A stretch of 64,000 nucleotides of DNA from Zunongwangia endophytica. Its GTDB lineage: Bacteria; Bacteroidota; Bacteroidia; Flavobacteriales; Flavobacteriaceae. The DNA lies in NCBI RefSeq assembly GCF_030409505.1, contig NZ_JAUFPZ010000002.1, positions 1,054,001-1,118,000 of the forward strand, in the 5' to 3' direction. Positions 1-64,000 of this stretch are shown piece by piece. Each line of letters opens with the position of its first letter. Position 1 is the first letter of the stretch. The notes under the pieces were generated by a model that was given only the letters and a program-made list of their open reading frames with translations, made no database searches and was not told the DNA's origin. The translations under genes and the position numbers were made by a program.

Positions 1-2
1 TG

Positions 3-902
3 GCTTTATATATTAATAACAGGAATGCTAATAATCAATACAAAAAGCAAATTGATAATAATTTATTGCGTGCGTATTCGGAATTAGAAGGGAACATAGA
101 AGAAGCTCAAGAAACCATTTTGAAAATTAAAGAAAAAGACTCTTTAATTTATTTAGTGATGAATGATTTGATTGAACCTGAAGCGTATTACAAAGATATA
201 AATTTAGCCTATTTGATATTATTCTTTTATAATTTAAATATTGAAGACAAGGCATTTCAAAACTTAATATCAATAAATGTAGCTGATAATAAGTATAAGG
301 AAGAATTACTTTCAAGTTTAAAAGAACTGTATTCTATAAATGAAAATATAAAAGAAGTTAACCAAAGAATGTCAACTTTTGTTTATGACAAAAGTTTACC
401 AATGTTAGCTAAAAACACTAAAACTTTTGGAGATTTGACATATAAAGGAGAAATAAAAAAAGACGTTGTTGATTTTTTTATTACTTCGCTAGAATATAAA
501 TCATATGTCAGTCAATATGCAATAATTGCAATTAAAAATCAACTTAAACATAATCAGGACTTTCTTAAAAAAGCGTATAGTTTGCGTTCAAAAATGACAA
601 ATGAATACAACCTTGATAGTAAAAACTTATTGAAAAAAGATTCTCTTATTTCTCAATATAAAGGTTTATACTCAAGTAAAACTCTAAAAGATACAATAGC
701 TATTAAATTCGCAAATGATTCAATACTGTTTTATAGAAATAAGGAGTTTCAGCTAAACCTTATTCCACTAACTAAAGATTGCTATTTTACAGACAATGAA
801 GGTGGCGGATATTTTGTTTCTTTTCTTGAAAAAAAAGATACTCTACGTATGGAATTAAACTTATTGTCGAATAAGTACTTATATGAAAAAATAAAAAAAT
901 AA
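3..902 (+). CDS. Partial membrane-associated protein, DUF6090-like (unknown function)
   Basis: The reading frame is open from base 3, so the true start lies left of the window; 299 codons are visible. The first residues (ALYINNRN) followed by a charged helical stretch resemble the segment just after the single membrane helix of DUF6090-type flavobacterial proteins; the protein at 40934-41599 has the same layout with the helix present. The rest is Lys/Asn-rich and mostly helical, with a shorter beta-like tail. No catalytic motif is visible. It is the only gene of its cassette and stops 4 bases before the attC. The family assignment is weak. Confidence 0.6.
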   Translation, partial: ALYINNRNANNQYKKQIDNNLLRAYSELEGNIEEAQETILKIKEKDSLIYLVMNDLIEPEAYYKDINLAYLILFFYNLNIEDKAFQNLISINVADNKYKEELLSSLKELYSINENIKEVNQRMSTFVYDKSLPMLAKNTKTFGDLTYKGEIKKDVVDFFITSLEYKSYVSQYAIIAIKNQLKHNQDFLKKAYSLRSKMTNEYNLDSKNLLKKDSLISQYKGLYSSKTLKDTIAIKFANDSILFYRNKEFQLNLIPLTKDCYFTDNEGGGYFVSFLEKKDTLRMELNLLSNKYLYEKIKK

Positions 903-906
903 CGGT

Positions 907-1041
907 TGTCAACAAAGTGTATAATTAATTGCTTTGGTCGTTGCTTATTTGGAAAATTCCTTCAGAACCTTCTCGCGTTAGTTTTTGTTTACTAAATTAG
1001 TTGCTTAAACACGCAACTAACCATACACAAGACCGTTAGCA
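907..1041 (+). repeat. attC-like site 1 (class C2)
   Basis: Left arm TGTCAAC, right arm GTTAGCA. Inner arms GTGTATAA and the CATACAC side pair. The loop holds GGAAAATTCC. The cassette it closes starts outside the window. Confidence 0.8.
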
Positions 1042-1087
1042 CCAATTTTGACTCGTCCTGAATAAAGGCTACATAATTTCAAACATT

Positions 1088-1459
1088 ATGTATAAAAATG
1101 ACAGAGTAATCAGACGGTATTCCGAATCGTTCAAACTAAAAATTTTAGACGAACTTACGGCAGGAAAATTAAACAAGTATCAACTAGGTAAAGCTTACGG
1201 TATTGCTCCAACAACCATAAACGAGTGGATCAGGAAATATAACCGTAAAGACCTTATGAACACCAGAGTGACTGTGAAAACAAAAGATGAGATTACACGC
1301 ATCAAACAGCTTCAAAAAGAAATTGAACAGCTGAAGAAACTTCTTTTGAAAAAGGATATAGACGCCCTTATAGAAGATTCTTATCTTGAAGTGGCAGCAG
1401 AACAGCTGGGCTATAAATCAGTGCTTGAACTTAAAAAAAAACTAAGTATCAAGCCTTGA
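1088..1459 (+). CDS. IS-A transposase OrfA (helix-turn-helix)
   Basis: 123 aa. An N-terminal helix-turn-helix (about residues 10-50, including LGKAYGIAPTTINEWIRKY) should bind the IS ends; a leucine-zipper-like coiled coil (about 65-95) follows, as usual in IS3-family OrfA. The stop overlaps OrfB. A run of nine A at 1433-1441 just before the stop is a good site for -1 ribosomal frameshifting; the -1 frame is open into OrfB and would give the fused OrfAB transposase. Confidence 0.93.
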   Translation: MYKNDRVIRRYSESFKLKILDELTAGKLNKYQLGKAYGIAPTTINEWIRKYNRKDLMNTRVTVKTKDEITRIKQLQKEIEQLKKLLLKKDIDALIEDSYLEVAAEQLGYKSVLELKKKLSIKP

Positions 1460-3996: not shown

Positions 3997-4012
3997 GGAA
4001 AACAAAAACTGG

Positions 4013-4207
4013 TGCTAACACCGTATATAGCTCATAGCTAATTAGTTGATTAATCAAAGTTATGGCATATTTGCGAAGTCCGCCAATTTTTTTAATTTGG
4101 CTTATTGAAAGGAAAAGGTGATAAGAAAATTAAAAAATTCGGCTCGTGCTTAACCGAAAAATAATCGTTAATTTACACGCTACGAGCCATATACAATACC
4201 GTTAGGG
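4013..4207 (+). repeat. attC-like site 2 (class B)
   Basis: Left arm TGCTAAC, right arm GTTAGGG. Inner arms GTATATAGCTCATAGC and GCTACGAGCCATATAC. Closes the LysE/LysR cassette, whose start GTTAGCACCA is complementary to its end. Confidence 0.88.
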
Positions 4208-4221
4208 CACATTAGAACGAA

Positions 4222-5874: not shown

Positions 5875-5885
5875 ATAATAACGTG

Positions 5886-6081
5886 CCCTAACAACGTATA
5901 TAACTCATAGCTAATCAGTTGTTTAAACAAAGTTAAGGCATATTTGGAAAGTCGCCAAATTTTTAAATTTGACGATTTCCAATTAAAAAGATAAATAGTA
6001 AAATTTAAAAATCTGGCTTGTACTCAACCGAAAATTAAAAGCTAATTTACACGCTACGAGCCATATACAAAACCGTTACCC
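5886..6081 (+). repeat. attC-like site 3 (class B)
   Basis: Left arm CCCTAAC, right arm GTTACCC. GTATATAACTCATAGC pairs with GCTACGAGCCATATAC. The cassette start GTTAGGGCAC mirrors its end GTGCCCTAAC. Confidence 0.9.
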
Positions 6082-6087
6082 ACCATT

Positions 6088-6669
6088 TTGAAAAAAGCAA
6101 ATCTCGAAAATAAAATCATAGACGCGACTTCAAGTTTACTTGATATGGCAACTGATATGTGTTGGAATAAAATCTCGAGAAAGTGTGATTATATTATGTC
6201 CGAAATTGACAATTCAATCGGAGGAAATCTTTATGAACAAGCGAAAATAAGAAAGAAAATTAACGACAAAAAAACGCCCAAATCGGTAAGTGAAATTGTG
6301 GCGGAATTGAATAAATTATTTGAGAATCTTTACGACATAAATCTTTATATTTATAAATCTCTAAATAACAAAACCATAGTCGAAATAAGATATTTTCTCA
6401 AAACAGCTCACACAGCGGAATTTTATTCAACAATAATAGATAATGAACCGATGTTGCATTGTAAAGTATCGATTCCACCTTACGTTGCGAAAAAACCCAA
6501 CTCTGATGAGATTCAAAAAAAATTCGATGTGAATTGGGAATTAGGTGGAATTAGGCAAGAATGGAATAAATTTTTGGGTAAATTACGGTATCAAATATGG
6601 AAATATAATTACGACCGAAAACAAAGATTGCGAAAAAAAACGGTGGGTAACAACGTATATAAAAAATAG
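6088..6669 (+). CDS. Unknown cytoplasmic protein with attC-encoded C-terminus
   Basis: 193 aa from a TTG start (MKKANLENK) only 12 bases after the crossover; no ATG offers a better N-terminus. No known domain is recognised; it is charged, lacks membrane segments and has a basic C-terminal part. The last residues (VGNNVYKK) and the TAG stop are encoded by the left arm of the next attC, so translation runs into the recombination site. Confidence 0.75.
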   Translation: MKKANLENKIIDATSSLLDMATDMCWNKISRKCDYIMSEIDNSIGGNLYEQAKIRKKINDKKTPKSVSEIVAELNKLFENLYDINLYIYKSLNNKTIVEIRYFLKTAHTAEFYSTIIDNEPMLHCKVSIPPYVAKKPNSDEIQKKFDVNWELGGIRQEWNKFLGKLRYQIWKYNYDRKQRLRKKTVGNNVYKK

Positions 6670-6840
6670 CTATGTTATTTCTAAAACGTAAATTTTGGTA
6701 TATTTGGTAAGTCGCCAAATCTTTTGATTTGGCTTTTGAAAAGTAAAGATAAAATCAAAATGCAAAAGCTTTGGCTTATGGTGAGACTGAAAAGATTGTG
6801 CTTGTTTTTACGCTACTTTCCATATACAAACTCGTTGCCA
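6645..6840 (+). repeat. attC-like site 4 (class A)
   Basis: Left arm GGGTAAC, right arm GTTGCCA. Inner arms GTATATAAAAAATAGC and GCTACTTTCCATATAC; the loop has the hairpin GCCAAATCTTTTGATTTGGC. Start GTTACCCACC mirrors the end. Confidence 0.9.
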
Positions 6841-6861
6841 GTAATCTAAAAAACATACTCA

Positions 6862-11604: not shown

Positions 11605-11823
11605 ATCAAGTTTACAAGAAGGGAATCCGGTAAATAAAATTATGCTAAGTTAGTAGATGTGGTTGGTGGGCCGCATACATACCATTGATGATACTGATTT
11701 TGGTAATTTAACAGAAGACGAAAAGAAAAATCTAGAAGATATGTTAGGTAAAATTTCTGACATCTTTAAGGAAGAGGAAGAGGAAGAGGAAGATAAAATA
11801 GAGGCATCTGAATAAAAGACTAC

Positions 11824-11957
11824 TGGCAACACCGTATATAATTTATTGCTGGCTTCCCGCCTACTTACGAAAGTCCTCGCGGACTTTCTTGGCCGGTAAT
11901 TATTTACTAAATGAGTTGCTTAAAACACGCAACAAACCATATACAAACACGTTGTGC
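11824..11957 (+). repeat. attC-like site 5 (class C)
   Basis: Left arm TGGCAAC, right arm GTTGTGC. GTATATAATTTATTGC pairs with the CAAACCATATAC side; the loop hairpin is GAAAGTCCTCGCGGACTTTC. It closes the PHP-ATPase cassette (GTTGCCAGTA / TACTGGCAAC). Confidence 0.9.
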
Positions 11958-11988
11958 GTCATTTAAGAAAACCGAAACATTAAAAAAT

Positions 11989-12930: not shown

Positions 12931-12939
12931 AAAACGAAC

Positions 12940-13070
12940 GCACAACAATGGCTATAAGTAATTGCTTGTCCTCGCCCACTTCTGAAAATCCTCGCGGATT
13001 TTCAGTTTGATGTGTACTTGCTAAATTAAGCGCTAACCCACGCAACTACTCATAGCCGAGACCGTTAGCC
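12940..13070 (+). repeat. attC-like site 6 (class D)
   Basis: Left arm GCACAAC, right arm GTTAGCC. GGCTATAAGTAATTGC pairs with GCAACTACTCATAGCC; the loop hairpin is TGAAAATCCTCGCGGATTTT. Cassette ends concord with a one-base bulge. Confidence 0.9.
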
Positions 13071-13091
13071 ACAATTAAAAAAACAACACTA

Positions 13092-13862: not shown

Positions 13863-13869
13863 TAACTGT

Positions 13870-14001
13870 GGCTAACACCGTATAACAACAATTGCGGTTT
13901 AGTGCTTAATCAAAGGTCATTGCGTGTTTGTAACGTCTGATTTTCCCTCGGAAAATTCTCGCATGCAAACTCGCAACTATTGTTATACATAAACGTTGCC
14001 A
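13870..14001 (+). repeat. attC-like site 7 (class E)
   Basis: Left arm GGCTAAC, right arm GTTGCCA. GTATAACAACAATTGCGG pairs with CGCAACTATTGTTATAC. Start GTTAGCCACA mirrors the end. Confidence 0.9.
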
Positions 14002-14338
14002 AAAATAGCTCCGAAACCAAATCAGAAGTTTAAATCATTGAATTCACTGAAACTTATCAATTTTTCGGGAAAAGCAGAAATGAAAAAACGGAATGGCTAA
14101 AAGTGACGTTAGCAATACGTGGACTTAAACTCACTCGAATAGAAAAGAAAAGAAAAAAGATAAATTGTTGCGGATAAAATTTTATCAGCACTGCTCTATT
14201 TTCTAATCTTTGCGGATAAAAATTCAATTTATAATTCATTTTCAAAATGATAATTTAATCTAAACGGACTAAAAAGCTCAGGGACGATAAACAGGAATCG
14301 CTTAGCAGTTCGTACTCAGCAGAACGTGTCGCTACATT
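14002..14338 (+). other. ORF-less cassette body, family 2
   Basis: No plausible gene on either strand. Starts AAAATAGCTCCGA and ends AGAACGTGTCGCTACATT next to the attC. It shares the block TTGCGGATAAA then CAGCACTRCTCTATTTTC with 50815-51262 and 59763-60103. GCTCAGGGACGATAAACAGGA lies near the right end in a related form in those copies. Function unknown. Confidence 0.7.
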
Positions 14339-14470
14339 AGGCAACAACGTATACCAGCAATTGCGGGTTTTGTGTCCTGCGGACACAATATCGAAAGCGT
14401 GAAATTCGGGGATTTTTTCTATCTTAGTTTTCCAAACACCGCAACTGACGGGTATTCAATACCGTTGCCA
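14339..14470 (+). repeat. attC-like site 8 (class E)
   Basis: Left arm AGGCAAC, right arm GTTGCCA. GTATACCAGCAATTGCGG pairs with CCGCAACTGACGGGTATTC. Only GTTGCC of the cassette start matches before the extended stem resumes at TAGC. Confidence 0.85.
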
Positions 14471-14516
14471 GCAATGCTGACTCGTCCTGAATAAAGGCTA
14501 CATAATTTCAAACATT

Positions 14517-15875: not shown

Positions 15876-16005
15876 TGCCAACAACGCGTATAGACAATTG
15901 CGGCTAAATACTTAATCGATATTCGATGTTTTTAGCTATATTTATTTTAAGCGGACAAAACTTGGCAAACCAGCCCGCAACTGTCCATACTCGAAACCGT
16001 TATAC
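15876..16005 (+). repeat. attC-like site 9 (class G)
   Basis: Left arm TGCCAAC, right arm GTTATAC. GCGTATAGACAATTGCGG pairs with CCGCAACTGTCCATACTC. Same class as 42261-42390. Confidence 0.87.
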
Positions 16006-16073
16006 ACAATTATGAGGACTGTACTTTCCTGAAATAGGTTGACTAAAAATTAAACCTTTTAGTACTATACCTA

Positions 16074-17899: not shown

Positions 17900-17909
17900 T
17901 AAAAACGTT

Positions 17910-18044
17910 GGGTAACACCGTGTATAATTAATTGCTTTGGCAAGTGCTTATTTGGAAAATTCCTTCGGAATTTTCTCGCGTTCGTTTTTGTTTACTAAAT
18001 TAGTTGCTTAAACACGCAACTAACCATACACAAACACGTTGCCA
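17910..18044 (+). repeat. attC-like site 10 (class C2)
   Basis: Left arm GGGTAAC, right arm GTTGCCA. GTGTATAATTAATTGC pairs with GCAACTAACCATACAC; loop hairpin GGAAAATTCC/GGAATTTTC. Confidence 0.88.
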
Positions 18045-18166
18045 CCAACATTAAAAAAGCGATTTAAATTTTAATAAGTAAAAAATATCAATTTTGATTA
18101 TTCGAAAATAGAGATCTGTAGCCAATTATTTTCAGAAAAAATCAAAACTTTAAAAATTTCAATACA

Positions 18167-42253: not shown

Positions 42254-42260
42254 AAACTAA

Positions 42261-43003: not shown

Positions 43004-43052
43004 GTAAGCTAAACAAAAATAAGAATTCGGAAAAATAGCTTATATTAGCAAT

Positions 43053-43686: not shown

Positions 43687-43698
43687 ATAAAAGCCTAC

Positions 43699-43893: not shown

Positions 43894-43939
43894 TCAATTG
43901 TGACTCGTCCTGAATAAAGGCTACATAATTTCAAACATT

Positions 43940-45199: not shown

Positions 45200-45773
45200 T
45201 TGCTCCTGACCCAATCTCACCCGAAAGCAGAACAGAACACAAAAAATATTACTCGAAATTCGATAAAATTAGCCACTATTTTTTTGAAATAAAAAACGAA
45301 AGCTAAAAATGGCACTCTAAAATCGAATTCAAATTAAAAATGCGAACTAAAGAAAATAAGCAAGGAAGTGGAAAATGTTCCGTAGAAAGAGCGCAAAAAC
45401 TGAACTGACCGAAAAACAATTAAAGTCGAAATTCGCTAAATTTGAAAACTATTTTTAGTGAATAAAAGTTCAAAAAAAACGGATTAAAGATTAAAATCAA
45501 TCTTAGCGCAATATCAAACCGCAGAAATAAAAACTTAAAATCAAAATCCGACTTAAGAAAATGAGCAATATTTCGGAAAAATCTCTCACAAACTTTAAAA
45601 CCCAAAAAAATCAAATTGAAAATTTTAAACAAAAAATTGAAAGTAAAAAACACCACGCTCCCACTCTAGAAAACTTAAAAAAATAAATTTTAAAAAAGCT
45701 GATATTGGATAAATCTGAACAAAACTCTATAGAAATATCACTAAAATAAAAAGCAGAACGTGTCGCAACAGAA
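45200..45773 (+). other. ORF-less cassette body, family 1 (member d, right part)
   Basis: Joined to the 13 bases left of IS-A copy 3 it begins CAATTGCTCCTGAC where others have AATAGCTCC, and ends GTGTCGCAACAG where others have GTGTCGCTACATT: the TAGC to TTGC change occurs at both ends, a compensatory pair. It also carries CCACGCTCCCACTCT near 45655. Confidence 0.7.
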
Positions 45774-45908
45774 AGGCAACAATGGTTATAATTCATTGCG
45801 GCGGAATTTTTCTACCGAAAATTCCACGAATATTTGCTAAATTACAGCCGTAACTGAAAAGCACTGGCGTACTTTTCCGCAACGAAATCATAACCTAATC
45901 CGTTACCC
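45774..45908 (+). repeat. attC-like site 31 (class F)
   Basis: Left arm AGGCAAC, right arm GTTACCC. GGTTATAATTCATTGCGG pairs with CCGCAACGAAATCATAACC. Confidence 0.9.
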
Positions 45909-46055
45909 AAAATAGCTCCTGACAAAATTGACCGAAGAAAATTTAGAATCAAAATTCGTTAAATCCAGAGTAAATTATTTTAGAAACTCAAGAAATAATC
46001 AAGCAATCAAATCCTGCACTCAAATTCATTTAAATGAAAATTCTAATTTAAATAG
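45909..46055 (+). other. ORF-less cassette body, family 1 (member e, left fragment)
   Basis: Matches the first 145 bases of 25788-26313 (AAAATAGCTCCTGAC through ATTCTAATTTAAA) and then stops at IS-A copy 4. The right part and its attC are missing, so this cassette was cut by an IS-linked deletion. Confidence 0.7.
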
Positions 46056-48678: not shown

Positions 48679-48683
48679 ACATT

Positions 48684-48815
48684 TTACAACAATGTGTATA
48701 ATTCATTGCAAGTTATAGTCTACTTACGAAAGTCCTCGCGGACTTTATATCTGTGATTTATTTGCTAACTTTTGTGTTTAAATACGCAACGAAATCATAC
48801 ACTAAACAGTTGTAA
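48684..48815 (+). repeat. attC-like site 32 (class C variant)
   Basis: Left arm TTACAAC, right arm GTTGTAA. GTGTATAATTCATTGC pairs with GCAACGAAATCATACAC; loop hairpin GAAAGTCCTCGCGGACTTT. Confidence 0.88.
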
Positions 48816-48821
48816 ACAATT

Positions 48822-49019: not shown

Positions 49020-49511
49020 ATGAACGAAAACGAAGACTATTTCATAATTTCTAAAAATGGGAACATTCACACTTTGAGTGACCGAACTCAATTTAAATGG
49101 AAAGAACTATTGATTTGGACTTCTACTTCATTCATATTCCTGATTTGGTTTATCGGAATTGGAGTCGGAATATTTGTTGCGATTTTAACCTTAATAGGAT
49201 ACACTATTTACCGATTTGCTTCTTGGATTTACTACTCGGAATTAAAAATAGACGAGAAAAGCGGAAAATTAACTCGACTGAAAAAAATACTCTACCGAAC
49301 TCAAAAAACGGAATTGATAACTGAAAAGTTTGACCCAAACCGATTTGAATACTCGGAATTAACTCGGAGTGGAAAAACGAAGTTCTTAATGAATTATCGG
49401 ACACATAAAAACAACGAATTATTAATATTAAAAAATAAAACGGACAAAGAACTAATTGAGAAATACATTGCGGAAAAAATAACTGTTTACAACAACGTAT
49501 ATAGCTCATAG
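49020..49511 (+). CDS. Membrane protein with attC-encoded C-terminus
   Basis: 163 aa. Two membrane helices (about 28-47 and 49-72) followed by a soluble basic tail of about 90 residues. The last residues (TVYNNVYSS) and TAG come from the attC arm. It begins immediately after the preceding stop, so both small membrane proteins probably act together. No family recognised. Confidence 0.75.
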   Translation: MNENEDYFIISKNGNIHTLSDRTQFKWKELLIWTSTSFIFLIWFIGIGVGIFVAILTLIGYTIYRFASWIYYSELKIDEKSGKLTRLKKILYRTQKTELITEKFDPNRFEYSELTRSGKTKFLMNYRTHKNNELLILKNKTDKELIEKYIAEKITVYNNVYSS

Positions 49512-49681
49512 CTAATCACTTGCTTAATCAAAGTTAAGACATATTTGGAAAGTCGCCAAATTTTTAAATTTGAAGATTTCCAATAAAAAAGATAAATAGC
49601 AAAAATTAAAAATATGGCTCGTGCTCAACCGAAAATAATTTATAATTTTCACGCTACGAGCCATATACAAAATCGTTGTAG
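49487..49681 (+). repeat. attC-like site 33 (class B)
   Basis: Left arm TTACAAC, right arm GTTGTAG. GTATATAGCTCATAGC pairs with GCTACGAGCCATATAC. Start GTTGTAAACA mirrors the end TGTTTACAAC. Confidence 0.9.
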
Positions 49682-49712
49682 CCAATGTTCACAAAAATCT
49701 TAACTATTATAA

Positions 49713-50675: not shown

Positions 50676-50683
50676 AACACTGG

Positions 50684-50814
50684 CTACAACACCGTATAAC
50701 AACAATTGCGGCTTTGTGTCCTAAGCTCACAAACGAGCAAGCATAAAAGTCGGTAATTTTAGCTATCTTAGTTTTAACCAATCCGCAACTGATTGTTATA
50801 CAACACCGTTGCCA
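50684..50814 (+). repeat. attC-like site 34 (class E)
   Basis: Left arm CTACAAC, right arm GTTGCCA. GTATAACAACAATTGCGG pairs with CCGCAACTGATTGTTATAC: the variable bases covary between arms. Confidence 0.9.
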
Positions 50815-51262
50815 AAAATGCGTAATTTTCAGCGAGTTAAACTGAAACTTTCCTTATTTTTTAGTCTTTTTTCTAAATTTGAACCTAAGCTATTTGAAAA
50901 TCCGTATGGATATTTCTTACTCAAAACGAAAAAATTGGGACGGATGAAACTGACTAGAAATATTTGCGCGGAGAAACTTAAATTTGAATAAAAAAACTAG
51001 AACTCAGCGGATTTAAACTTACTCGGATTGATAAATTGAAATGGAGAAATTGTTGCGGATAAAATTACAACTCAGTAGACTTGAACTTACTCAAGCTCGA
51101 TAAATAATCGCGGATGAAAATTTTTCAGCACTACTCTATTTTCTAATACTTGCGGATAAAGGCAAATTACAAATCTGGTTAAAATTTTTAATTTGAATTC
51201 AGTCAACCAAAAAGCTAAAGAACGATAAAGTACAAATGAAAAGCTGTGCGGAAAAGCACTTT
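50815..51262 (+). other. ORF-less cassette body, family 2 (member b)
   Basis: About 450 bases. A 60-codon frame at 50809-50991 begins inside the attC arm and has no support. The family blocks TTGCGGATAAAATTACAACT, TCAGCACTACTCTATTTTCT and AAGCTAAAGAACGATAAAG are present. It lacks the GTGTCGCTACA block at the right end. Confidence 0.62.
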
Positions 51263-51457
51263 AGGCAACAACGTATATAAAAAATAGCTACATCTTTTCT
51301 TAATCGTAAATTTTGGTATATTTGGTAAGTCGCCAAATCTCTTGATTTGGCTTTTGAAAAGTAAAAATAAAATCAAAATGCAAAAGTTTTGGCTTGTGTT
51401 AAAGCGAAAAAATTGCGCTTATTTTTACGCTACTTTTCATATACAAACTCGTTGTGA
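51263..51457 (+). repeat. attC-like site 35 (class A)
   Basis: Left arm AGGCAAC, right arm GTTGTGA. GTATATAAAAAATAGC pairs with GCTACTTTTCATATAC; only GTTGCC of the cassette start matches the end. Confidence 0.88.
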
Positions 51458-51470
51458 TTAATTTTTTATT

Positions 51471-52333
51471 ATGAGTGAACAATCAAAATACCAGGGATGG
51501 TTAAGAATTCTATTTATCATTCTTCCACATATTTTTATTGTGGGAGTTTTCCAAATCGTAACAAGAATTTTAGTAGGTTTTTCATATAGTGATTTAGAAA
51601 TTGAGAAAACTCCAGAGCAAAGATTAGCCATTCAATTCGCATCTTTTCTAGGAACCATGCTAGTCGTTTGGATATTTGTAAAACTTATAGATAAAGAGAA
51701 GTTTATAGATGTAGGATTGAGGTTTAGAAATGAAATAAAAAGCTTTTGGGCTGGATTTTCAATTGGCGCTATAATAATGTTCTTAGGATTTGGATTATTA
51801 AAAATTCTAGGAGAAATAAAAATTCAAAACATCGATTTAGACTTTGATCAAATATTAACTTCAATAGTGATATTTGTTCTGGTATCTTTTACCGAGGAAA
51901 TTCTATTTCGAGGTTATATTTTGAGAAACCTTATGTATTCTTTTAATAAATATATTGCTCTCATTATATCAGCAATTTTATTCTCATTGATGCATGGACT
52001 CAATCCTAACATTGATCTTATAGGTTCTATAAACATTTTCTTGCTGGGATTTTATTAGGAATAAGTTATATCCACACAAAAAATCTATGGTTCCCAATTG
52101 CCCTACATTTTAGCTGGAATTTTTTTCAAACCATTTTAGGTTTTAATGTAAGTGGCCAAAATACTTATTCAGTCTTTAAATTAAGTATACCAGAAAAAAA
52201 TCTTTTGAATGGCGGTGCTTTTGGTTTTGGAGGATCAATAATATCTTTAATTGCTATACTGATTACAATAGTTGCAATTTCAATTCATTATAGAAGAAAA
52301 AAACTAATCACAACAACGGTTCATCGCCAATAA
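51471..52333 (+). pseudogene. CPBP-family intramembrane protease (frameshifted)
   Basis: Frame 1 (51471-52058, 195 aa) has four to five membrane helices and the ABI/CAAX protease motifs: SFTEEILFRGYILR (EExxxR) and LFSLMHG (His). It stops at TAG 52056-52058; the continuation in another frame gives GISYIHTKNLWFPIALHFSW (HFxWN motif) and a last helix, ending in the attC at 52331-52333. One G missing near 52043 (TTGCTGGG for TTGGCTGGG) explains it. The motifs survive, so the break is recent or a sequencing error. Confidence 0.82.
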
Positions 52334-52440
52334 GCGGCACCGTTACTAAGAAAATAATTAACTTGACCAACAAACCAGCACTAAGCCGACAAATCCGAGT
52401 CCCATACTCCGCCAACTGGCGATAACCGAGACCGTTGCCC
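52308..52440 (+). repeat. attC-like site 36 (class H)
   Basis: Left arm TCACAAC, right arm GTTGCCC. GTTCATCGCCAATAAGCGG pairs with CCGCCAACTGGCGATAAC. Start GTTGTGATTA mirrors the end. Confidence 0.87.
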
Positions 52441-52465
52441 ACAATTTGAGAAAAATCGTAAATCA

Positions 52466-53110: not shown

Positions 53111-53117
53111 AAACTGT

Positions 53118-53252
53118 GGGCAACACCGTGTATAATTAATTGCTTGGTTCTAGCCTACTTGCGAAAATTCCTGCGGAATTTTCACGGGTTCGTAAATGTT
53201 TACTAACTTAGTTGCTTAACCACGCAACTAACCATACACAATCACGTTGGCA
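53118..53252 (+). repeat. attC-like site 37 (class C2)
   Basis: Left arm GGGCAAC, right arm GTTGGCA. GTGTATAATTAATTGC pairs with GCAACTAACCATACAC; loop hairpin GAAAATTCCTGCGGAATTTTC. Confidence 0.9.
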
Positions 53253-53298
53253 ACAAGGTTGACTCGTCCTGAATAAAGGCTACATAATTTCAAACATT

Positions 53299-55519: not shown

Positions 55520-55526
55520 AAACTAT

Positions 55527-55656
55527 GCACAACAATGGCTATAAGTAATTGCTTATTCTCGTCTACTTTGGAAATTATCGAGAAATTTCCGTATTGGTGT
55601 GACTTGCAAAGTTAAGTACTAAACCACGCAACTACTCATAGCCGAGACCGTTACCC
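55527..55656 (+). repeat. attC-like site 38 (class D)
   Basis: Left arm GCACAAC, right arm GTTACCC. GGCTATAAGTAATTGC pairs with GCAACTACTCATAGCC. The loop hairpin (GGAAATTATCGAGAAATTTCC) differs from other class D sites. Confidence 0.89.
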
Positions 55657-56179
55657 AAAATAGCTCCTGACAAAACTGACCGAAAAAAATTTAGATCCAA
55701 AATTCGTTAAATTCAGAGTAAAATATTTTAGAAACTCAAGAAATAATCAAGCAATCAAATCGTGCGCTGAAATTCATTTAAATGAAAATTCTAATTTAAA
55801 AAGCTAAGCAACACCGCGTACAAGTAGTTAAAAAATATTAGTGAAATTGTAAAATTTGGCCGGTAATTTTTGGGATTTAAAGCACTACGGAAAACTAATA
55901 ATTAAAATAACTTCAATTTAAAATTCAAACTTAAAAAGCTAATGATGCGCGCAACCAATCTCTCTCAGAATTAAATTAGAAAAATTCAACTTAAAATTTA
56001 ATCCCAACGCTGGAGAAACTTCAAATTGTAAAATTCTATTATCAATTTGGACGCTCAAAAGCCTCTCTCCCACTCTGAAAAATTTAAAAAGTCAAATCGC
56101 AACTAAACCTATATTCGATAAATCTGACAACATTTTAAAAAAGGATAAAAAAAAACCAATCAAAGCGTATCGCTAAATT
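55657..56179 (+). other. ORF-less cassette body, family 1 (member f)
   Basis: Close relative of 25788-26313 with scattered changes. Blocks: AAAATAGCTCCTGAC, CAACCAATCTCTCTC, GCCTCTCTCCCACTCTGAAA, ATATTCGATAAATCTGAC, and GTATCGCTAAATT at the end (GTGTCGCTACATT elsewhere). Confidence 0.72.
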
Positions 56180-56312
56180 GGGTAACATCGGTTATAATTC
56201 ATTGCGGCGGAATTTTCTACCGAAAATTCCAGGAATATTTGCTAAATTACAGCCGTAACCGAAAAGTCCTGGCGGACTTTTTCGCAACAAATCATAACCG
56301 GAGCCGTTAGCC
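56180..56312 (+). repeat. attC-like site 39 (class F)
   Basis: Left arm GGGTAAC, right arm GTTAGCC. The spacer is ATC instead of AAC; GGTTATAATTCATTGCGG is otherwise as in sites 15, 41 and 45. Confidence 0.89.
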
Positions 56313-56894
56313 AAAATAACTCCTGACAAAAACACTTCTTGAAAACTGAACTGACCATAGAACAATCAACACTCGAGATTCGATAAAAACAAAGATTATT
56401 TTATAGAGAAAAACGGAAAAACACGCTTTTAAAAAAGATCTGACCGCAGAAAAAATTTTAATCCAAATTCGATAAAATCGGACACTATTTTACAGTTTCT
56501 AAAATAGAAAATTAATTAAATGGAATCCTATATATATAAAATTGACTGTGATTTTTAGAAATCTAAACGGACAAAAAATGACAGCAAAAATCACTGAATT
56601 TCAACATTTAAAGAAATCCGAATACTTGAATAATCAGGAACGCGGAAAAACACCACGGAGAATCAATCTCTCGGAAAATTTTAATTGAAATTCATCAAGA
56701 AAATAAAAAATAACATTCCTGACCGATAATGATCAAATTGGAGATTTTAAACAAAAAATTAAAAACAAAAAACACCACACTCCCACTCTGGAAAACTTAA
56801 AAAATTATATTATAAAAAAGCTGATAATGAATAAATCTGACCAAAATTTTTAAAAAATAAGAACAATAAAACAAATCAGAGCTGTCGTTACATT
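56313..56894 (+). other. ORF-less cassette body, family 1 (member g)
   Basis: About 580 bases. Starts AAAATAACTCCTGAC and ends GTCGTTACATT: the TAGC of other members is TAAC at both ends, a compensatory change. Also contains TCAATCTCTCGG near 56670 and CACTCCCACTCTGGAAAA near 56775. Confidence 0.72.
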
Positions 56895-57026
56895 GGCTAA
56901 CAACGTATAATAGCAATTGCGGCATTTCGTGCTGCGGACAAAATCTTGTAAGCATAAAAGTCAGGAATTTTAGCTATCTTAGTTTTCAACAAATCCGCAA
57001 CTGACGATTATACGAAGACGTTACCC
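56895..57026 (+). repeat. attC-like site 40 (class E)
   Basis: Left arm GGCTAAC, right arm GTTACCC. GTATAATAGCAATTGCGG pairs with CCGCAACTGACGATTATAC. Start GTTAGCC mirrors the end. Confidence 0.9.
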
Positions 57027-57612
57027 AAAATAGCTTCTGACAAAAATACTTTCTGAAAACCGAACTGACCGCAGAAAAATCAACACTCGAAATTCCATAA
57101 AAACGAAGAACATTTTTAAAAAGAAAAGCGGAAAAAACTCGCGGAAAAAACGATCTAATCGCAAAAAATTATAATCAAAATTCGATAAAATCGAACTCTA
57201 TTTTAAAGACTTAAAGAATAAAAAAAACAAATAAATGAAATCCAATATTGGATAAAATTGACGGCTATTTTTAGAAGCTAAAACTGACTTTAAGTGGGCA
57301 AGCACGAGAAAAAATACTGAAAATTTGAACTTTTAAATGAAATCTATACTCTAGAATCATCAGTGATGTGGAAATCATCAAGCAAAACAAATCTCTCCCT
57401 AAATATGAATTGAAAATTCAGCTAACAATTAAAAAGCAACACTGAAAAAACTTCAAATTGTAAAATTTCGCTTTAAATTTTAGAGTTTTATACTCCTCTC
57501 CCACTCTGAAAAACATTAAAATCTAAAATCCAATCTAAGCTGATATTCGATAAATCTGATAACATTTTTAAAGAATAAGAACTAAAAACAAAATTTGGCG
57601 TGTCGTTACATT
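57027..57612 (+). other. ORF-less cassette body, family 1 (member h), chimeric
   Basis: The left end is of the TAGC type (AAAATAGCTTCTGAC, start GTTACCC) but the right end is of the TAAC type (GTCGTTACATTGGCTAAC). The ends therefore do not match each other, while the right end matches member g. No IS is present; recombination between two family members explains it. Confidence 0.7.
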
Positions 57613-57745
57613 GGCTAACAACGGTTATAATTCATTGCGGCGGAATTTTATACCAAAAATTCCAGGAATATTTGCTAAATTACAGCGGTAACCGAAAAGT
57701 CCTGGCGGACTTTTCTGCAACAAATCATAACCGGAGCCGTTACCC
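57613..57745 (+). repeat. attC-like site 41 (class F)
   Basis: Left arm GGCTAAC, right arm GTTACCC. GGTTATAATTCATTGCGG pairs with CTGCAACAAATCATAACC. Confidence 0.89.
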
Positions 57746-57773
57746 AAAATTATAAACCAAGTTTTCGTTGTTA

Positions 57774-58592: not shown

Positions 58593-58605
58593 ATATTATA
58601 ACTTT

Positions 58606-58737
58606 GGGTAACAACGATTCATCGCAAATAACGGGTATTGCCGAAAAAGTGTAATTTAGAAAACCAATAAATAAAACGGTAAGCCGACAACTCCGCATCC
58701 TTACTCCCGTGACTTGCGATAATCGAAACCGTTAGCA
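58606..58737 (+). repeat. attC-like site 42 (class H)
   Basis: Left arm GGGTAAC, right arm GTTAGCA. GATTCATCGCAAATAACGGG pairs with CCCGTGACTTGCGATAATC; bases differ from site 36 but pairing is kept. Confidence 0.87.
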
Positions 58738-58752
58738 CCAATTTGACAAAAA

Positions 58753-59625
58753 ATGAAAATACAACTTTTATTATTAATGATACTAACTTCAATTTCTGGA
58801 AATAGTCAATCTAACTATTCTGGTAATTTAGGAAAGTATAACATAACATTAATAATGTATCATTACAAAGATGGCGATTCACGTGCTTACTATGTTTATG
58901 ACAAATTTGATACTCCAATTACAATTAATGGTAGATTAGAAGATGGAGAATTAAAACTTTTTGAAAAAGATAATTCCGAAAAAAAATCTGCCATTTTGAT
59001 TTTTAAAGATTTCAAAGAAAGTGATAAAACTATTAAAGGAAAATGGATTAGTATTGATGGATCTAAAACTTATCCAATTTCATTAAAAAAAGATTTTGAA
59101 ATTGATTATGGTAATAATGTTGAATGGAAAACTAGGGAACTTATTCAATCAAACACTACAGAGGAACATTATTTCAAAACGATAATCACAAAAGAAAAAG
59201 GACAACTCTATGGAAGAATTTCTGGTGTGAAAATATTTGAAAAAAAATCAGACAAACTAATACAAACTATAGAATTAGATTGCCAACTGTTCGGAATTGA
59301 TAACGTGAGTGTTGGAGATTACAACTTTGACGGTATTGAAGATTTTTCCGTTTTTGAGGCCAGTTATGCTGGACCAAATACCTCGAGTATTTACATCTTA
59401 AGGGACCCAAATTCAAACCGGTATATAAAAAGTAATTTTAGCGGAACTTCTTTAGAATTTGATAATGAATCAAAACTCATTTACGAACATAATCAATGTT
59501 GTGCTGGTAGAAGTCATAGGAACGCTACTTATAAAGTGGTCAATAATGAAATGGTTTTAATAGAAGAAGAATGCCTTGATTATGATGAAAAGCAAAAAGA
59601 TTTTATTGAAGTTGAATGTGAATAA
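58753..59625 (+). CDS. Secreted protein with FG-GAP-like motif, unknown
   Basis: 290 aa with a signal peptide (MKIQLLLLMILTSISGNSQ). The first half is beta-rich (YNITLIMYHYKDGDSRAYYV, GKWISIDG). The second half contains SVGDYNFDGIEDFSVFEASY, a calcium-binding loop like that of FG-GAP/VCBS repeats and XAC2610-type proteins. A Cys pair NQCCAGRS is near residue 250. Periplasmic. Single gene, cassette ends GTTAGCACCA / TGGTGCTAAC. Confidence 0.78.
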   Translation: MKIQLLLLMILTSISGNSQSNYSGNLGKYNITLIMYHYKDGDSRAYYVYDKFDTPITINGRLEDGELKLFEKDNSEKKSAILIFKDFKESDKTIKGKWISIDGSKTYPISLKKDFEIDYGNNVEWKTRELIQSNTTEEHYFKTIITKEKGQLYGRISGVKIFEKKSDKLIQTIELDCQLFGIDNVSVGDYNFDGIEDFSVFEASYAGPNTSSIYILRDPNSNRYIKSNFSGTSLEFDNESKLIYEHNQCCAGRSHRNATYKVVNNEMVLIEEECLDYDEKQKDFIEVECE

Positions 59626-59631
59626 AACTGG

Positions 59632-59762
59632 TGCTAACACCGTATAACAACAATTGCGGCTTTGTCTCTTGCGGATACGACCACGCAAGCACAAAATCGG
59701 GAATTTTAGCTATCTTAGTGTTTAATCAATCCGCAACTGATTGTTATACAAAACCGTTGGTA
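59632..59762 (+). repeat. attC-like site 43 (class E)
   Basis: Left arm TGCTAAC, right arm GTTGGTA. GTATAACAACAATTGCGG pairs with CCGCAACTGATTGTTATAC. Confidence 0.9.
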
Positions 59763-60103
59763 ACAATAGCTCCGAAAACGAAATCAGAGTATTTTATCAT
59801 CAAACTCACTGAAACTTATCAAACATAAGGCAAAAGCAGAAACGATAATCTGGATGGCTATTCTGAGCGGAAATAAAATTCAAAGTTAACTGACAAACTT
59901 ACTCAGACGGATAAATTTTGATGGATAATCTGTTGCGGATAAAGTTCTCTCAGCACTACTCTATTTTTCTGAATCGTTACGCATTTAACCTGCATTAAAA
60001 TTCGTTTTAAAGCTAATATTTCAGGCTTATTTAATTTTAAAAGCAGGAACGATAAAGTGGGATCGCTAAGCAGAACGTTCTCAGCAAGACGTGTCGCTAA
60101 AGT
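59763..60103 (+). other. ORF-less cassette body, family 2 (member c)
   Basis: Starts AATAGCTCCGAAAACGAAAT and ends AAGACGTGTCGCTAAAG. Contains TTGCGGATAAAG, TCAGCACTACTCTATTTTTC and GAACGATAAAGTGGGATCGC, as in 14002-14338. No plausible gene. Confidence 0.68.
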
Positions 60104-60234
60104 AACCAACAACGTATACCAGCAATTGCGGGTTTGTGTCCTGCGGACACAATATCGAAAGCGTAAAATTCAGGGATTTTTTCTATCTTAGTTTTCTAAA
60201 CACCGCAACTGACGGGTATACAATACCGTTACCC
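60104..60234 (+). repeat. attC-like site 44 (class E)
   Basis: Left arm AACCAAC, right arm GTTACCC. GTATACCAGCAATTGCGG pairs with CCGCAACTGACGGGTATAC, the same subtype as site 8. Confidence 0.88.
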
Positions 60235-60760
60235 AAAATAGCTCCTGACAAAAATGACCGAAGAAAATTTAGAATCAAAATTCGTTAAATTCAGAGTAAA
60301 TTATTTTAGAAATTCAAGAAATAATCTACCAATCAAATCGTGCGCTGAAATTCATTTATATGAAAATTCTAATTTAAAAAGCTAAGCAACAAAGTGGATA
60401 AGGAATTAAAAAATATTGGTGAAATTGTAAAATTTGGCCGGCAATTTTTGGGATTTAACGCACTACGGAAAACTAATAATTAAAATAACTTCAATTTAAA
60501 ATTCAAACTTAAAAAGCTAATGCTGCGCGGAACCAATCTCTCTGAGAATTAAATTAGAAAAATTCAACTTAAAATTTAATCGCAACGCTGGAGAAACTTC
60601 AATTTGTAAAACTCTCTTTTCAATTTGGACGCTCAAAAACCTCTCTCCCACTTTAAAAAATTTAAGAAGTAAAATCACATCTAAACCGATATTCGATAAA
60701 TCTGACAACATTTTAAAAAAGGATAAGAACAAAAAATAAATCAAAGCGTGTCGCTACATT
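60235..60760 (+). other. ORF-less cassette body, family 1 (member i)
   Basis: Nearly identical to 25788-26313, including the attC that follows (class F). Only a handful of single-base changes are visible over 650 bases, so one is a recent copy of the other. Confidence 0.74.
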
Positions 60761-60893
60761 GGGTAACAACGGTTATAATTCATTGCGGCGGAATTTTCTA
60801 CCGAAAATTCCAGGAATATTTGCTAAATTACAGCCGTAACCGAAAAGTCCTAGCGGACTTTTCCGCAACAAATCATAACCGGAGCCGTTGGCA
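60761..60893 (+). repeat. attC-like site 45 (class F)
   Basis: Left arm GGGTAAC, right arm GTTGGCA. GGTTATAATTCATTGCGG pairs with CCGCAACAAATCATAACC; loop AAAAGTCCTAGCGGACTTTT. Confidence 0.9.
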
Positions 60894-60947
60894 ACAAGCT
60901 AAAAAAAATTAGACAATCATAAAAAACAACCAAAATCGATATTTTTG

Positions 60948-61524: not shown

Positions 61525-61532
61525 AAGCCAGT

Positions 61533-61726
61533 TGCCAACAACATATATAACAAATAGCTAAGTCTTTTCTAAACCGGAAATTTCAGTATATTTGGTTAGT
61601 CGCCAAATCTTTTGATTTGGCTTTTTGAACTAAAATTAAAAATCAAAACGCAAAAGTTTTGGCTTGTGACAAATCGAAAATTAACTCATTTTTGCTCGCT
61701 ACTTGTCATATATAAACACGTTGCCA
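61533..61726 (+). repeat. attC-like site 46 (class A variant)
   Basis: Left arm TGCCAAC, right arm GTTGCCA. ATATATAACAAATAGC pairs with GCTACTTGTCATATAT: the AAC/TTG... change is matched on both sides. Start GTTGGCAAC mirrors the end. Confidence 0.88.
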
Positions 61727-62158
61727 GAAATGCCTCCGAAACTCAGTCAAACCGAATATTATTTAAAAGAATTGAAGGTTAATAGGATTCAAAATCTATA
61801 AAATTGAGATTCATTTCCTTAAATTTTTGTCAGTACTGACAATCTAAAATTGACGAATATAAAACAATCGAAAATCTATATTTTAAGATTGGTTTTTAAA
61901 GAAAATATTCAGAACAAAAGAAAAACTTACTCAGTTCTAAAAACGAAGCGATGAACCAATAACTCTTTGAAAAAATACAAAAAGCAAGAAAGCAGAACCC
62001 GAGAAAATATAAATAATAAAATCAATATTTATAAAGTTTTTTTCTGCCCTATTTGATAAAAATTAATAATTGAAATTTGATAGATTTATTAATTATTTTT
62101 AAAATGTAGAAATGGAAAAAATTATTGAATTGTACTATGCAGAACGTGTCGGCAAAGC
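61727..62158 (+). other. ORF-less cassette body, family 3 (member b)
   Basis: Starts AATGCCTCCGA, ends GAACGTGTCGGCAAAGC. Largely alignable with 42391-42871, including TAAAAGAATTGAAGGTTAAT and AACCCGAGAAAATATAAATA; about 50 bases shorter. Followed by the same attC class (F2). Confidence 0.68.
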
Positions 62159-62291
62159 TGGCAACAATGGTTATAATTAATTGCTACTGAATTTTCTATC
62201 GAAAATTCAAGACTTTTTGCTAAATTTAGTTACACAATTGAAAATCCTAGCGGATTTTCACGCAACATAATCATAACCCAAACCGTTGTGC
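62159..62291 (+). repeat. attC-like site 47 (class F2)
   Basis: Left arm TGGCAAC, right arm GTTGTGC. GGTTATAATTAATTGC pairs with GCAACATAATCATAACC; loop GAAAATCCTAGCGGATTTTC. Confidence 0.89.
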
Positions 62292-62337
62292 GTAAGCTAA
62301 AAACAGCAAATTTCACAACAGGTAATTCGACTAAATT

Positions 62338-63006
62338 ATGATGATTGACAAAGAATTTATTGACAAAACCGAACGTTCTGAATGGGATTTTAGCAACGAA
62401 ATTCTTTACTCAATGTGCAGAGAAAATTTCACTCATACACAAACGGACAAAATTATTGGAAAAACCGTTTTAATTGGTCGAACTTATGCAGCTGCAATTG
62501 AAAGAAGAAAAAATAAAACCAAAGAGGAACAAAACGATAATTTTTATATTGACAAAGTTGCACCTGAATTTAAAAAATCAAAATTGGATTTTTATTTAGA
62601 AAAACTGAAATCTGAAACAGAACTGGACGAAAAAAATATTCCCGAAATTTTAAAAGTTCATTTTTATTTAACTAGTTTGATTAAGGAATTAACAGAGCAA
62701 AACAAAAGATCTTTTTCTTCAAAATATTTACATTTCCATCTTCCTCACTTATTTTTTATTTATGATACAAGAGCTGTAAAAGCAATTGGACTTTTAAAGA
62801 CGAAATTTCAATATAAATACAAAGAACAAATTAATTCGGAAAATGCTGATAAAGAATACGCATCCTTTTTTTATAAATGTTTTGCTCAAAAAAACAAATT
62901 GAAAAACGAATTTAATAGAAAAATATCGACTCGACATATTGACAATATATTAATGAAAGCCGTGGAACTGAATGAAACAAAAGCCTACGCACAACAACGT
63001 GTATAA
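62338..63006 (+). CDS. Unknown helical protein with attC-encoded C-terminus
   Basis: 222 aa. Almost all helical, charged, without membrane segments; conserved-looking core IGRTYAAAIERRK and FSSKYLHFHLPHLFFIYDTR. I do not recognise the family. The last residues (YAQQRV) and the TAA stop are read from the attC arm. The leader AAGCTAAAAAC is of the type seen in toxin-antitoxin cassettes. ATG 62338 is followed by a second ATG; either may start. Confidence 0.75.
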   Translation: MMIDKEFIDKTERSEWDFSNEILYSMCRENFTHTQTDKIIGKTVLIGRTYAAAIERRKNKTKEEQNDNFYIDKVAPEFKKSKLDFYLEKLKSETELDEKNIPEILKVHFYLTSLIKELTEQNKRSFSSKYLHFHLPHLFFIYDTRAVKAIGLLKTKFQYKYKEQINSENADKEYASFFYKCFAQKNKLKNEFNRKISTRHIDNILMKAVELNETKAYAQQRV

Positions 63007-63123
63007 TTAATTGCTTTGGTCGTTGCCTATTTGGAAAATTCCTTCGGAATTTTCTCACGTTCGTTTTTGTTTACTAAATTAGTTGCTTAACCACGCAACT
63101 AACCATACACAAACACGTTAGCG
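62989..63123 (+). repeat. attC-like site 48 (class C2)
   Basis: Left arm GCACAAC, right arm GTTAGCG. GTGTATAATTAATTGC pairs with GCAACTAACCATACAC. Start GTTGTGCGTA mirrors the end TACGCACAAC. Confidence 0.9.
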
Positions 63124-63169
63124 GTAATATTGACTCGTCCTGAATAAAGGCTACATAATTTCAAACATT

Positions 63170-63541
63170 ATGTATAAAAATGACAGAGTAATCAGACGGT
63201 ATTCCGAATCGTTCAAACTAAAAATTTTAGACGAACTTACGGCAGGAAAATTAAACAAGTATCAACTAGGTAAAGCTTACGGTATTGCTCCAACAACCAT
63301 CAACGAGTGGATCAAAAAATATAACCGTAAAGACCTTATGAACACCAGAGTGACTGTGAAAACAAAAGATGAGATTACACGCATCAAACAGCTTCAAAAA
63401 GAAATTGAACAGCTGAAGAAACTTCTTTTGAAAAAGGATATGGACGCCCTTATAGAAGATTCTTATCTTGAAGTGGCAGCAGAACAGCTGGGCTATAAAT
63501 CAGTGCTTGAACTTAAAAAAAAACTAAGTATCAAGCCTTGA
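63170..63541 (+). CDS. IS-A OrfA, copy 6
   Basis: 123 aa; two changes from copy 1 (WIKKYN for WIRKYN, DMDAL for DIDAL). A9 slippery run present. Confidence 0.92.
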   Translation: MYKNDRVIRRYSESFKLKILDELTAGKLNKYQLGKAYGIAPTTINEWIKKYNRKDLMNTRVTVKTKDEITRIKQLQKEIEQLKKLLLKKDMDALIEDSYLEVAAEQLGYKSVLELKKKLSIKP

Positions 63542-64000
63542 TCAAGGCCAAGCATAAATCCAGAGGATCTGCATCCCTTTCAGCCATAACAGCCTATTTT
63601 GGCCTTAAACGTGACGCCTACTATAAATACAAACATAGAGAAGACCAACGTTCAGAAGTAGAAAATAAGGTTGTTGCCATAGTCAAGAAAAGGCGCAGAT
63701 CCCTTCCTAGGGAAGGTGTTAGAAAACTGACCAGATCACTCGACAAAGAGTTTACAAATGCCGATTTAAAAATAGGTAGGGATACCTTATTCAACATTCT
63801 TAGAAAACATAATATGCTTACACTTAGAAAAAAATACAGTTCCAGAACCACCAACTCATTGCACAGGTTCCGCAAATACAAAAATATCATCAAATACCTC
63901 AAAGTAACAAAACCCAACCAAGTCTGGGTAAGTGATATTACTTATATAAGGACCATAAAGGGCTTTTGTTATCTGGCGCTAATTACAGATATGCACAGTC
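63538..64000 (+). CDS. IS-A OrfB, copy 6 (partial)
   Basis: The frame opens with the TTG overlapping the OrfA stop (LIKAKHKSRGSASLSAITAY) and stays open to the window edge, reaching the first catalytic Asp (WVSDITYIRT). Many silent and some replacement changes set it apart from the other five copies (for example HREDQRSEVENKVVAI and KYLKVTKPNQV). Confidence 0.88.
   Translation, partial: MIKAKHKSRGSASLSAITAYFGLKRDAYYKYKHREDQRSEVENKVVAIVKKRRRSLPREGVRKLTRSLDKEFTNADLKIGRDTLFNILRKHNMLTLRKKYSSRTTNSLHRFRKYKNIIKYLKVTKPNQVWVSDITYIRTIKGFCYLALITDMHS

What the first reader, a model, noticed from the sequence alone, without database searches (positions are those of the whole stretch)
1..64000. A 64-kb integron-like cassette array with 48 attC-like sites in a Bacteroidota genome
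Seen: 48 sites of 130-200 bp, all in the same orientation, each bounded by an AAC-ending left arm and a GTT-starting right arm with nested complementary inner arms (for example GTATAT/ATATAC). They separate about 47 units of one or two genes. Known: this is the architecture of sedentary chromosomal integrons, best described in Vibrio. Large arrays in Flavobacteriaceae-like genomes are, as far as I know, little described. Inference: an intI/attI platform should lie to the left of base 1, or the array is a cluster of attC sites lacking an integrase.
Basis: partly seen in the sequence, partly recalled or inferred. Interest (0 to 1): 0.9.

Follow-up and report, generated by a model that had tools for sequence, protein, structure and literature searches.

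The report
Integron-like gene bank, different integrase
The window is the middle of a long chromosomal collection of swappable gene cassettes in a marine bacterium, built like an integron but apparently run by a recombinase that lacks the part thought essential for integrons; the same kind of recombination site turns up in most of the related genera sampled.

Summary
In detail: 48 sites, all on one strand, in a Zunongwangia genome (Flavobacteriaceae). The array starts 26.5 kb left of the window and ends at 65.7 kb (74 sites); a second follows at 134-177 kb (34 sites).

It works like an integron. Each cassette's two ends are reverse complements over about 10 nt; identity of duplicated cassettes stops at G|TT; the inner arms covary. 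An attI lies 37 nt after an adjacent tyrosine recombinase gene and matches the first cassette at 9 of 10 bases.

It is not a standard integron. The recombinase lacks the IntI-specific I2 domain and falls outside the IntI clade. Only 4 of 106 R' boxes fit GTTRRRY. The short-site stem has no conserved extrahelical base; strand asymmetry is written as wobbles: 120 G.T against 1 A.C on the bottom strand.

Such sites occur in 176 of 199 genomes of the family; 120 of 121 with the recombinase have them. None was found around 22 IntI loci, 16 of them with short flanks. My paper searches found no description.

Single-stranded recombination, and that this enzyme does it, are inferred. If right, this is a natural I2-free cassette system that makes the origin of integrons testable.

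The parts
904..1044 (+). attC-like site (first in the window; the recombinase lies at -27776..-26565 and attI at -26537..-26519, left of base 1)
   Evidence: recombinase and attI:
4010..4210 (+). attC-like site
5883..6084 (+). attC-like site
6642..6843 (+). attC-like site
11821..11960 (+). attC-like site
12937..13073 (+). attC-like site
13867..14004 (+). attC-like site
14336..14473 (+). attC-like site
15876..16008 (+). attC-like site
17907..18047 (+). attC-like site
21633..21832 (+). attC-like site
22739..22939 (+). attC-like site
23438..23575 (+). attC-like site
25652..25790 (+). attC-like site
26311..26449 (+). attC-like site
29105..29241 (+). attC-like site
30271..30476 (+). attC-like site
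31575..31776 (+). attC-like site
32213..32413 (+). attC-like site
33011..33212 (+). attC-like site
33820..33956 (+). attC-like site
34422..34558 (+). attC-like site (weakest match, E 8e-4)
35570..35706 (+). attC-like site
37739..37877 (+). attC-like site
38530..38730 (+). attC-like site
39394..39531 (+). attC-like site
41601..41735 (+). attC-like site
42258..42393 (+). attC-like site
42869..43006 (+). attC-like site
43696..43896 (+). attC-like site
45771..45911 (+). attC-like site
48681..48818 (+). attC-like site
49484..49684 (+). attC-like site
50681..50817 (+). attC-like site
51260..51460 (+). attC-like site
52305..52443 (+). attC-like site (partial HMM match, both ends present)
53115..53255 (+). 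attC-like site
55524..55659 (+). attC-like site
56177..56315 (+). attC-like site
56892..57029 (+). attC-like site
57610..57748 (+). attC-like site
58603..58740 (+). attC-like site
59629..59765 (+). attC-like site
60101..60237 (+). attC-like site
60758..60896 (+). attC-like site
61530..61729 (+). attC-like site
62156..62294 (+). attC-like site
62986..63126 (+). attC-like site
58732..59756 (+). cassette present three times (also at 145101 and 159250), identity stops at G|TT on both sides
25782..26440 (+). cassette repeated at 60229-60887 (98.6% identical over 659 bp)

Best explanation
A large chromosomal integron-like platform: recombinase gene, attI 37 nt behind its stop codon, then cassettes each ending in an attC-like site. 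Cassettes are excised as circles and inserted by site-specific recombination between G and TT of R'. Shown by sequence comparison: the crossover position, attI, own-end complementarity, covarying stem, strand-asymmetric folding, co-localisation with the recombinase. Inferred: that this recombinase is the enzyme, that the bottom strand of the site acts folded and single-stranded as in integrons, and that the cassettes next to attI are expressed from a promoter near attI. The recombinase does this without the IntI-specific I2 domain; strand choice is probably encoded by G.T wobbles (A.C mismatches on the top strand) rather than by extrahelical bases. A possible substitute for I2 is the N-terminal domain, predicted to resemble branched-DNA-recognition domains (UvsW/XPB/HARP type; the functional class is recalled). 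This last step is speculative, and two short relatives (G104, G096) lack that domain.
For: Own-end complementarity >=5/7 in 92 of 106 links and >=6/7 in 29 of 34 links of 21 named loci. Three full copies of a 1024-1025 bp cassette with breaks at G|TT. attI: at the motif ATATAAC-NN-GTT behind the stop, match to the first R'' is >=8/10 in 17 of 20 loci, against means of 5.2-6.8 for other loci's R''. 11 of 16 stem pairs with double changes. Bottom strand 685 Watson-Crick, 120 G.T, 1 A.C, 26 other of 832 cells. Bottom strand folds better in 88 of 92 reconstituted and 79 of 92 in-array sites, against 152 of 300 random pieces, and in 28 of 29 in other genera. 120 of 121 recombinase-positive genomes have sites, against 56 of 78 others (counted by hand from the lists; Fisher 2e-9). 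No site in 306 kb around 22 IntI loci or in 39 of 39 loci of distant recombinases. The same chromosomal place in a relative holds 22.6 kb instead of 95 kb; only 4 of 104 cassettes match its fetched region over more than 200 bp.
Against: No experiment; no circular intermediate seen. 56 of 78 genomes without a recombinase hit at E<=1e-45 still have sites; site-free genomes are mostly small, so genome size confounds. Of 12 other genomes whose R1 regions were fetched, 3 had a recombinase of this type in the stretch. At least 22 genomes in the lists have both IntI and R1 sites; only the R1 stretches of those among the 12 fetched and, around its IntI, G244 were looked at in place. The IntI test has 20-kb flanks at 6 loci, about 1.5 kb at 16. 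Recombinases of this set are not one clade: 26 of 32 rows group together, one groups with IntI, three with XerC/D, two are unplaced. Link scores were poor in some genomes: G029 3 of 9 at >=5, G219 4 of 9 and G096 2 of 6 at >=6, probably in part from missed sites. In 3 of 20 motif-bearing loci attI does not match the first site found. 20 of 41 closer named loci show no site; three of them (L156, L161, L182) have 6 kb downstream. Full-length model weak near the catalytic tyrosine (pTM 0.49).
Confidence: 0.8

Rival explanations
1. The same platform works as ordinary double-stranded Xer-type recombination; the nested arms are inverted recombinase-binding sites and the hairpin never forms.
For: The enzyme is closest to XerA and lacks I2; the arm stem of the short sites has no conserved extrahelical base.
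Against: G.T against A.C is 120:1 on the bottom strand, a G.T pair is invariant in 52 of 52 sites, and folding favours one strand in 88 of 92: a duplex site would not be expected to keep such asymmetry. The two ends of one cassette match, the two ends of one site do not.
Confidence: 0.13
2. A classical integron whose IntI was lost or sits elsewhere; the adjacent recombinase is a bystander.
For: Site clusters lacking an adjacent recombinase of this family exist in this genome and in 9 of 12 other genomes' fetched stretches; at least 22 genomes of other groups have both IntI and such sites.
Against: No IntI above cut-off in the genome; no such site around 22 IntI loci; recombinase, attI and first cassette are linked in many genera; of 105 phylum genomes with IntI over the cut-off none is in the own order or family.
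Confidence: 0.05
3. Tandem transposon insertions or transcription-terminator repeats, no recombination system.
For: Two IS3-like elements are frequent in the array.
Against: The 14 IS copies found lie beside sites, 12 of them at one fixed offset per element, against 104 cassettes; terminators would not make cassette ends match each other or match attI.
Confidence: 0.02

Closest known systems
Sedentary chromosomal integron (IntI-attI-attC), as in Vibrio
   Same: Recombinase + attI + one-way array of cassettes; crossover G|TT in R'; cassette ends complementary; bottom strand folds better; toxin-antitoxin and defence-like cargo and gene-less cassettes (the Vibrio side partly recalled)
   Different: Recombinase without I2 and outside the IntI clade; R box matching over 10 nt (14 with one wobble) and not GTTRRRY (the classical 7-nt box is recalled, my own comparison failed); no conserved extrahelical base in the short sites; strand asymmetry by G.T wobbles; recombinase gene co-oriented with the array here (also known from some IntI, recalled)
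XerA (archaeal Xer) / XerC, XerD
   Different: Carries an N-terminal domain of about 95 residues and is linked to attI and cassette arrays; the genome has further Xer-like recombinases
CTX-phi / IMEX elements using host XerCD
   Same: A Xer-type enzyme without I2 recombining a folded single strand (PMC4792948, passages)
   Different: Those encode no integrase and make no cassette array

Membership tests
Integron | IntI integrase by curated model | tested here: not met
   TIGR02249 197 bits, cut-off 265; no match over the cut-off in the whole genome
Integron | IntI-specific additional domain (I2, around patch III) | tested here: not met
   71-72 residues in this recombinase and all 31 relatives aligned, against 113 in 16 of 16 IntI
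Integron | Integrase inside the IntI clade | tested here: not met
   16 IntI form a clade 100/100 without it; unrooted, 52 rows, few outgroups
Integron | attI next to the integrase gene | tested here: met
   (sequence comparison)
Integron | Crossover between G and TT of R' | tested here: met
   triplicate and duplicate cassettes, (by comparison, not by experiment)
Integron | R box GTTRRRY / RYYYAAC | tested here: not met
   4 of 106 R' and 4 of 109 R''; GTTR in 106 of 106
Integron | Extrahelical bases in the attC stem | tested here: not met
   in the aligned arm stem of 52 short sites, extra bases at two positions in 17 and 6 sites only; long sites not aligned
Integron | Recombination of folded bottom strand | not testable with these tools
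   folding and covariation only
Xer chromosome-dimer resolution | XerA/XerCD by curated model | tested here: inconclusive
   over the cut-off for XerA_Arch, far under those for XerC and XerD; dif not searched

The most novel reading that the evidence does not exclude
Flavobacteriaceae, and other Bacteroidota, carry a second lineage of integrons that recombines folded single-stranded attC sites without an I2 domain. It reads strand polarity from G.T wobbles, perhaps with a branched-DNA-recognition domain in place of I2, and is either the surviving state before I2 or an independent invention of cassette capture.
Probability: 0.55. Interest if true: 0.95.

Novelty: new variant of a known kind. 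Interest (0 to 1): 0.88.

Why it matters
The I2 domain is described as necessary for cassette capture and found in no other protein, with its deletion abolishing IntI1 function (PMC7790495, passages). A chicken-and-egg question about I2 and attC is left open (PMC4792948, passages). A natural cassette system without I2 would make that question testable. It would also mean that integron surveys tuned to IntI and GTTRRRY overlook a cassette reservoir whose sites are in 175 of 198 genera sampled in this family, with candidate phage-defence genes among the cargo.

Tried and rejected

Rows dropped: 3 of 72 seeds before the HMM; 5 rows before the tree; 52 of 68 non-redundant sites, short class only, given to the alignment; folding used only links >=5/7 (92 of 106; 29 of 34). 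Infernal scored at most 16 candidates a genome and 12, so site counts there are lower bounds. One search listed 120 of 7787 homologues, from the 8000 candidates scored. Of 66 ORFs found in the window's cassettes I scanned 20 with Pfam (6 without a family); PADLOC was given 9 window ORFs and one left of the window (3 of 10 without a match). Papers: passages only for PMC9024848, PMC9668308, PMC2426708, PMC8618304, PMC2727003, PMC8352920, PMC4792948, PMC7370490, PMC7790495; all others search listings. The statement that I found nothing in print rests; no preprints are held. Two odds figures were changed on checking (classical-integron rival 0.04 to 0.05, duplex rival 0.14 to 0.13), because the IntI test covers 22 loci, not 30 as first written.
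Full report
Place. The window is G000:C2:1054001-1118000 of a 4.38-Mb genome. A same-genus genome, G004, has the contig length (4,040,619) of Zunongwangia sp. HGR-M22, and another, G001, one of 491,906 as in Zunongwangia mangrovi DSM 24499; the genus is therefore taken to be Zunongwangia, Flavobacteriaceae.

The sites. Profile HMMs find 109 + strand sites in 306 kb; on the other strand only four weak echoes at E 0.009-0.09, and none at E<1e-3 in the reversed sequence. 74 lie in a first array (-26.0 to 65.7 kb), 34 in a second (134-177 kb), one alone at 230.6 kb near a broken recombinase. In the window there are 48. A covariance model (R1, built on short sites) gives 138 matches in the whole genome, including a further cluster at 173-207 kb on the other strand; some are on a 25-kb contig, C1, whose matches have the same scores as matches at about 1089-1107 kb of the chromosome, probably an assembly duplicate.

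Cassette logic. R' of a site and R'' of the NEXT site, that is the two ends of one cassette, are complementary: 84 of 106 links at 6-7 of 7 variable bases, against 3.9 on average and at most 13 in 2000 random pairings. Over the 92 links at >=5, positions 1-9 match in 93-100% and position 10 in 66%; position 11 never matches (start base A in 92, end base C in 81, A in 7, G in 4); positions 12-14 match in 89-98%. A.C on the top strand is G.T on the bottom strand, so the bottom strand can form a stem of about 14 pairs there. One 1024-1025 bp cassette is present three times (98.7-99.7% identical). Identity ends at G|TT on both sides, with 30-50% outside; the 0.57 inside the first 60 nt for two pairs is a one-base indel. 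83 of 104 cassettes have their longest ORF in the array's direction, 6 against it, 15 have none of 60 aa.

The same in relatives. Links >=5 of 7: G004 11 of 14, G019 11 of 11, G030 5 of 6, G005 1 of 1, but G029 only 3 of 9. Links >=6: G104 11 of 13, G168 2 of 3, G219 4 of 9, G096 2 of 6; 21 named loci 29 of 34. Low values may come from missed sites.

The fold. In 52 short bottom-strand sites from five genomes (33 from this one), RNAalifold gives 16 arm pairs, 11 with double changes. Over these arm columns the bottom strand has 685 Watson-Crick, 120 G.T, 1 A.C and 26 other cells of 832; one G.T pair is invariant in 52 of 52. Over 30-nt arms of 104 sites of this genome, top-strand A.C against G.T is 355 to 71; in 54 sites of named genera 186 to 32. 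The bottom strand of the reconstituted site is more stable in 88 of 92, mean difference -4.1 kcal/mol, and of the in-array site in 79 of 92, against 152 of 300 random pieces; in named genera 28 of 29. Sites share ancestry, so these counts are not independent events.

attI. Of 24 unnamed loci, 16 have a site downstream, and in all 16 the best 10-nt match to the first R'' (8-10 of 10) lies 27-135 nt after the recombinase stop. In 20 of 21 named loci with sites the motif ATATAAC-NN-GTT (one CTATAAC) is present, and the next 10 nt match the first R'' at >=8 in 17; a few genomes are in both sets. In those 21 named loci all sites lie downstream on the recombinase's strand. This is not universal: in G104, G096 and L062 the recombinase points away from the sites.

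Distribution. R1 matches 176 of 199 genomes of the own family (about one a genus); the recombinase (E<=1e-45) is in 121, of which 120 have sites, against 56 of the other 78 (table counted by hand). In the phylum sample R1 matches 105 of 247. Of 12 other genomes whose R1 regions I fetched, three (G104, G096, G168) have a recombinase of this type in the stretch, without I2; in none did a better match to IntI turn up there. IntI over the cut-off is in 105 of 395 phylum genomes: none in the own order or family, one in the own class. R1 has no match in 306 kb around 22 IntI loci, of which 6 have 20-kb flanks and 16 about 1.5 kb. At least 22 genomes in the lists have both IntI and R1 sites; beyond the R1 stretches of those among the 12 and the IntI flanks of G244 I did not look at their neighbourhoods.

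Dynamics. Both flanks of the first array are syntenic with G004, where the interval is 22.6 kb instead of 95 kb. Only four of 104 cassettes (c25, c35, c45, c97) match the fetched G004 stretch over more than 200 bp.

Cargo. Among 20 window ORFs scanned with Pfam and 10 ORFs with PADLOC: 5'-nucleotidase listed as candidate defence PDC-S08 (424 bits), PD-T7-4-like (82 bits), Ppl-like (67 bits, partial), PLD-domain, SRA-HNH, PemK/MazF-like and ParE-like toxin genes, a nucleotidyltransferase, CLC channel, LysE beside LysR, glycosyltransferase; a weak SIR2-like match (30 bits) in the first gene-bearing cassette of the array, left of the window.

Known work. IntegronFinder 2.0 reports, beyond Chlorobi and Ignavibacteriae, a single complete integron in Bacteroidetes, in Salinibacter ruber (PMC9024848, passages); other papers list Bacteroidota among integron-bearing phyla (PMC8618304 and PMC9668308, passages). 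Strand choice in classical attC rests on the extrahelical G (PMC2727003, passages). I2 is described as necessary and unique (PMC7790495, passages). My paper searches showed no Flavobacteriaceae integron of this kind.

Noticed in passing
1049, 14478, 43901, 53260, 63131, 170564, 177368 (and 46056): An IS3-like element (about 1300 bp, two ORFs) sits exactly 14 nt after the G of R', in array orientation, in 7 of 8 copies: the end of the 14-nt R stem. It seems to target the site; no clear target duplication.
   Followed up: partly
16021, 26460, 39544, 154709, 164554, 168815: A second IS3-like element (about 1354 bp) sits 22 nt after the G in 5 of 6 copies and 20 nt in one, same orientation. Known attC-targeting ISs are of the IS1111/IS110 type (recalled; search listing only).
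   Followed up: partly
-26527..-25886, 22931..23566, 139125..139776: Three near copies (83-87% identical) of one cassette, one of them first after attI and without an ORF of 70 aa.
   Followed up: no
G000:C2:173000-207000: Another site cluster on the opposite strand without an adjacent recombinase of this family.
   Followed up: partly
G000:C1 (24.9 kb contig): Carries sites with scores identical to those at chromosome 1089-1107 kb, probably a redundant contig.
   Followed up: no
L114/L115 (G096): GTTGAAGAAGAATTCG follows R' at four of seven sites of one array, looking like one element inserted at the crossover.
   Followed up: no
10630-11601: An IS66-type transposase gene inside the cassette that starts at 6834.
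   Followed up: no
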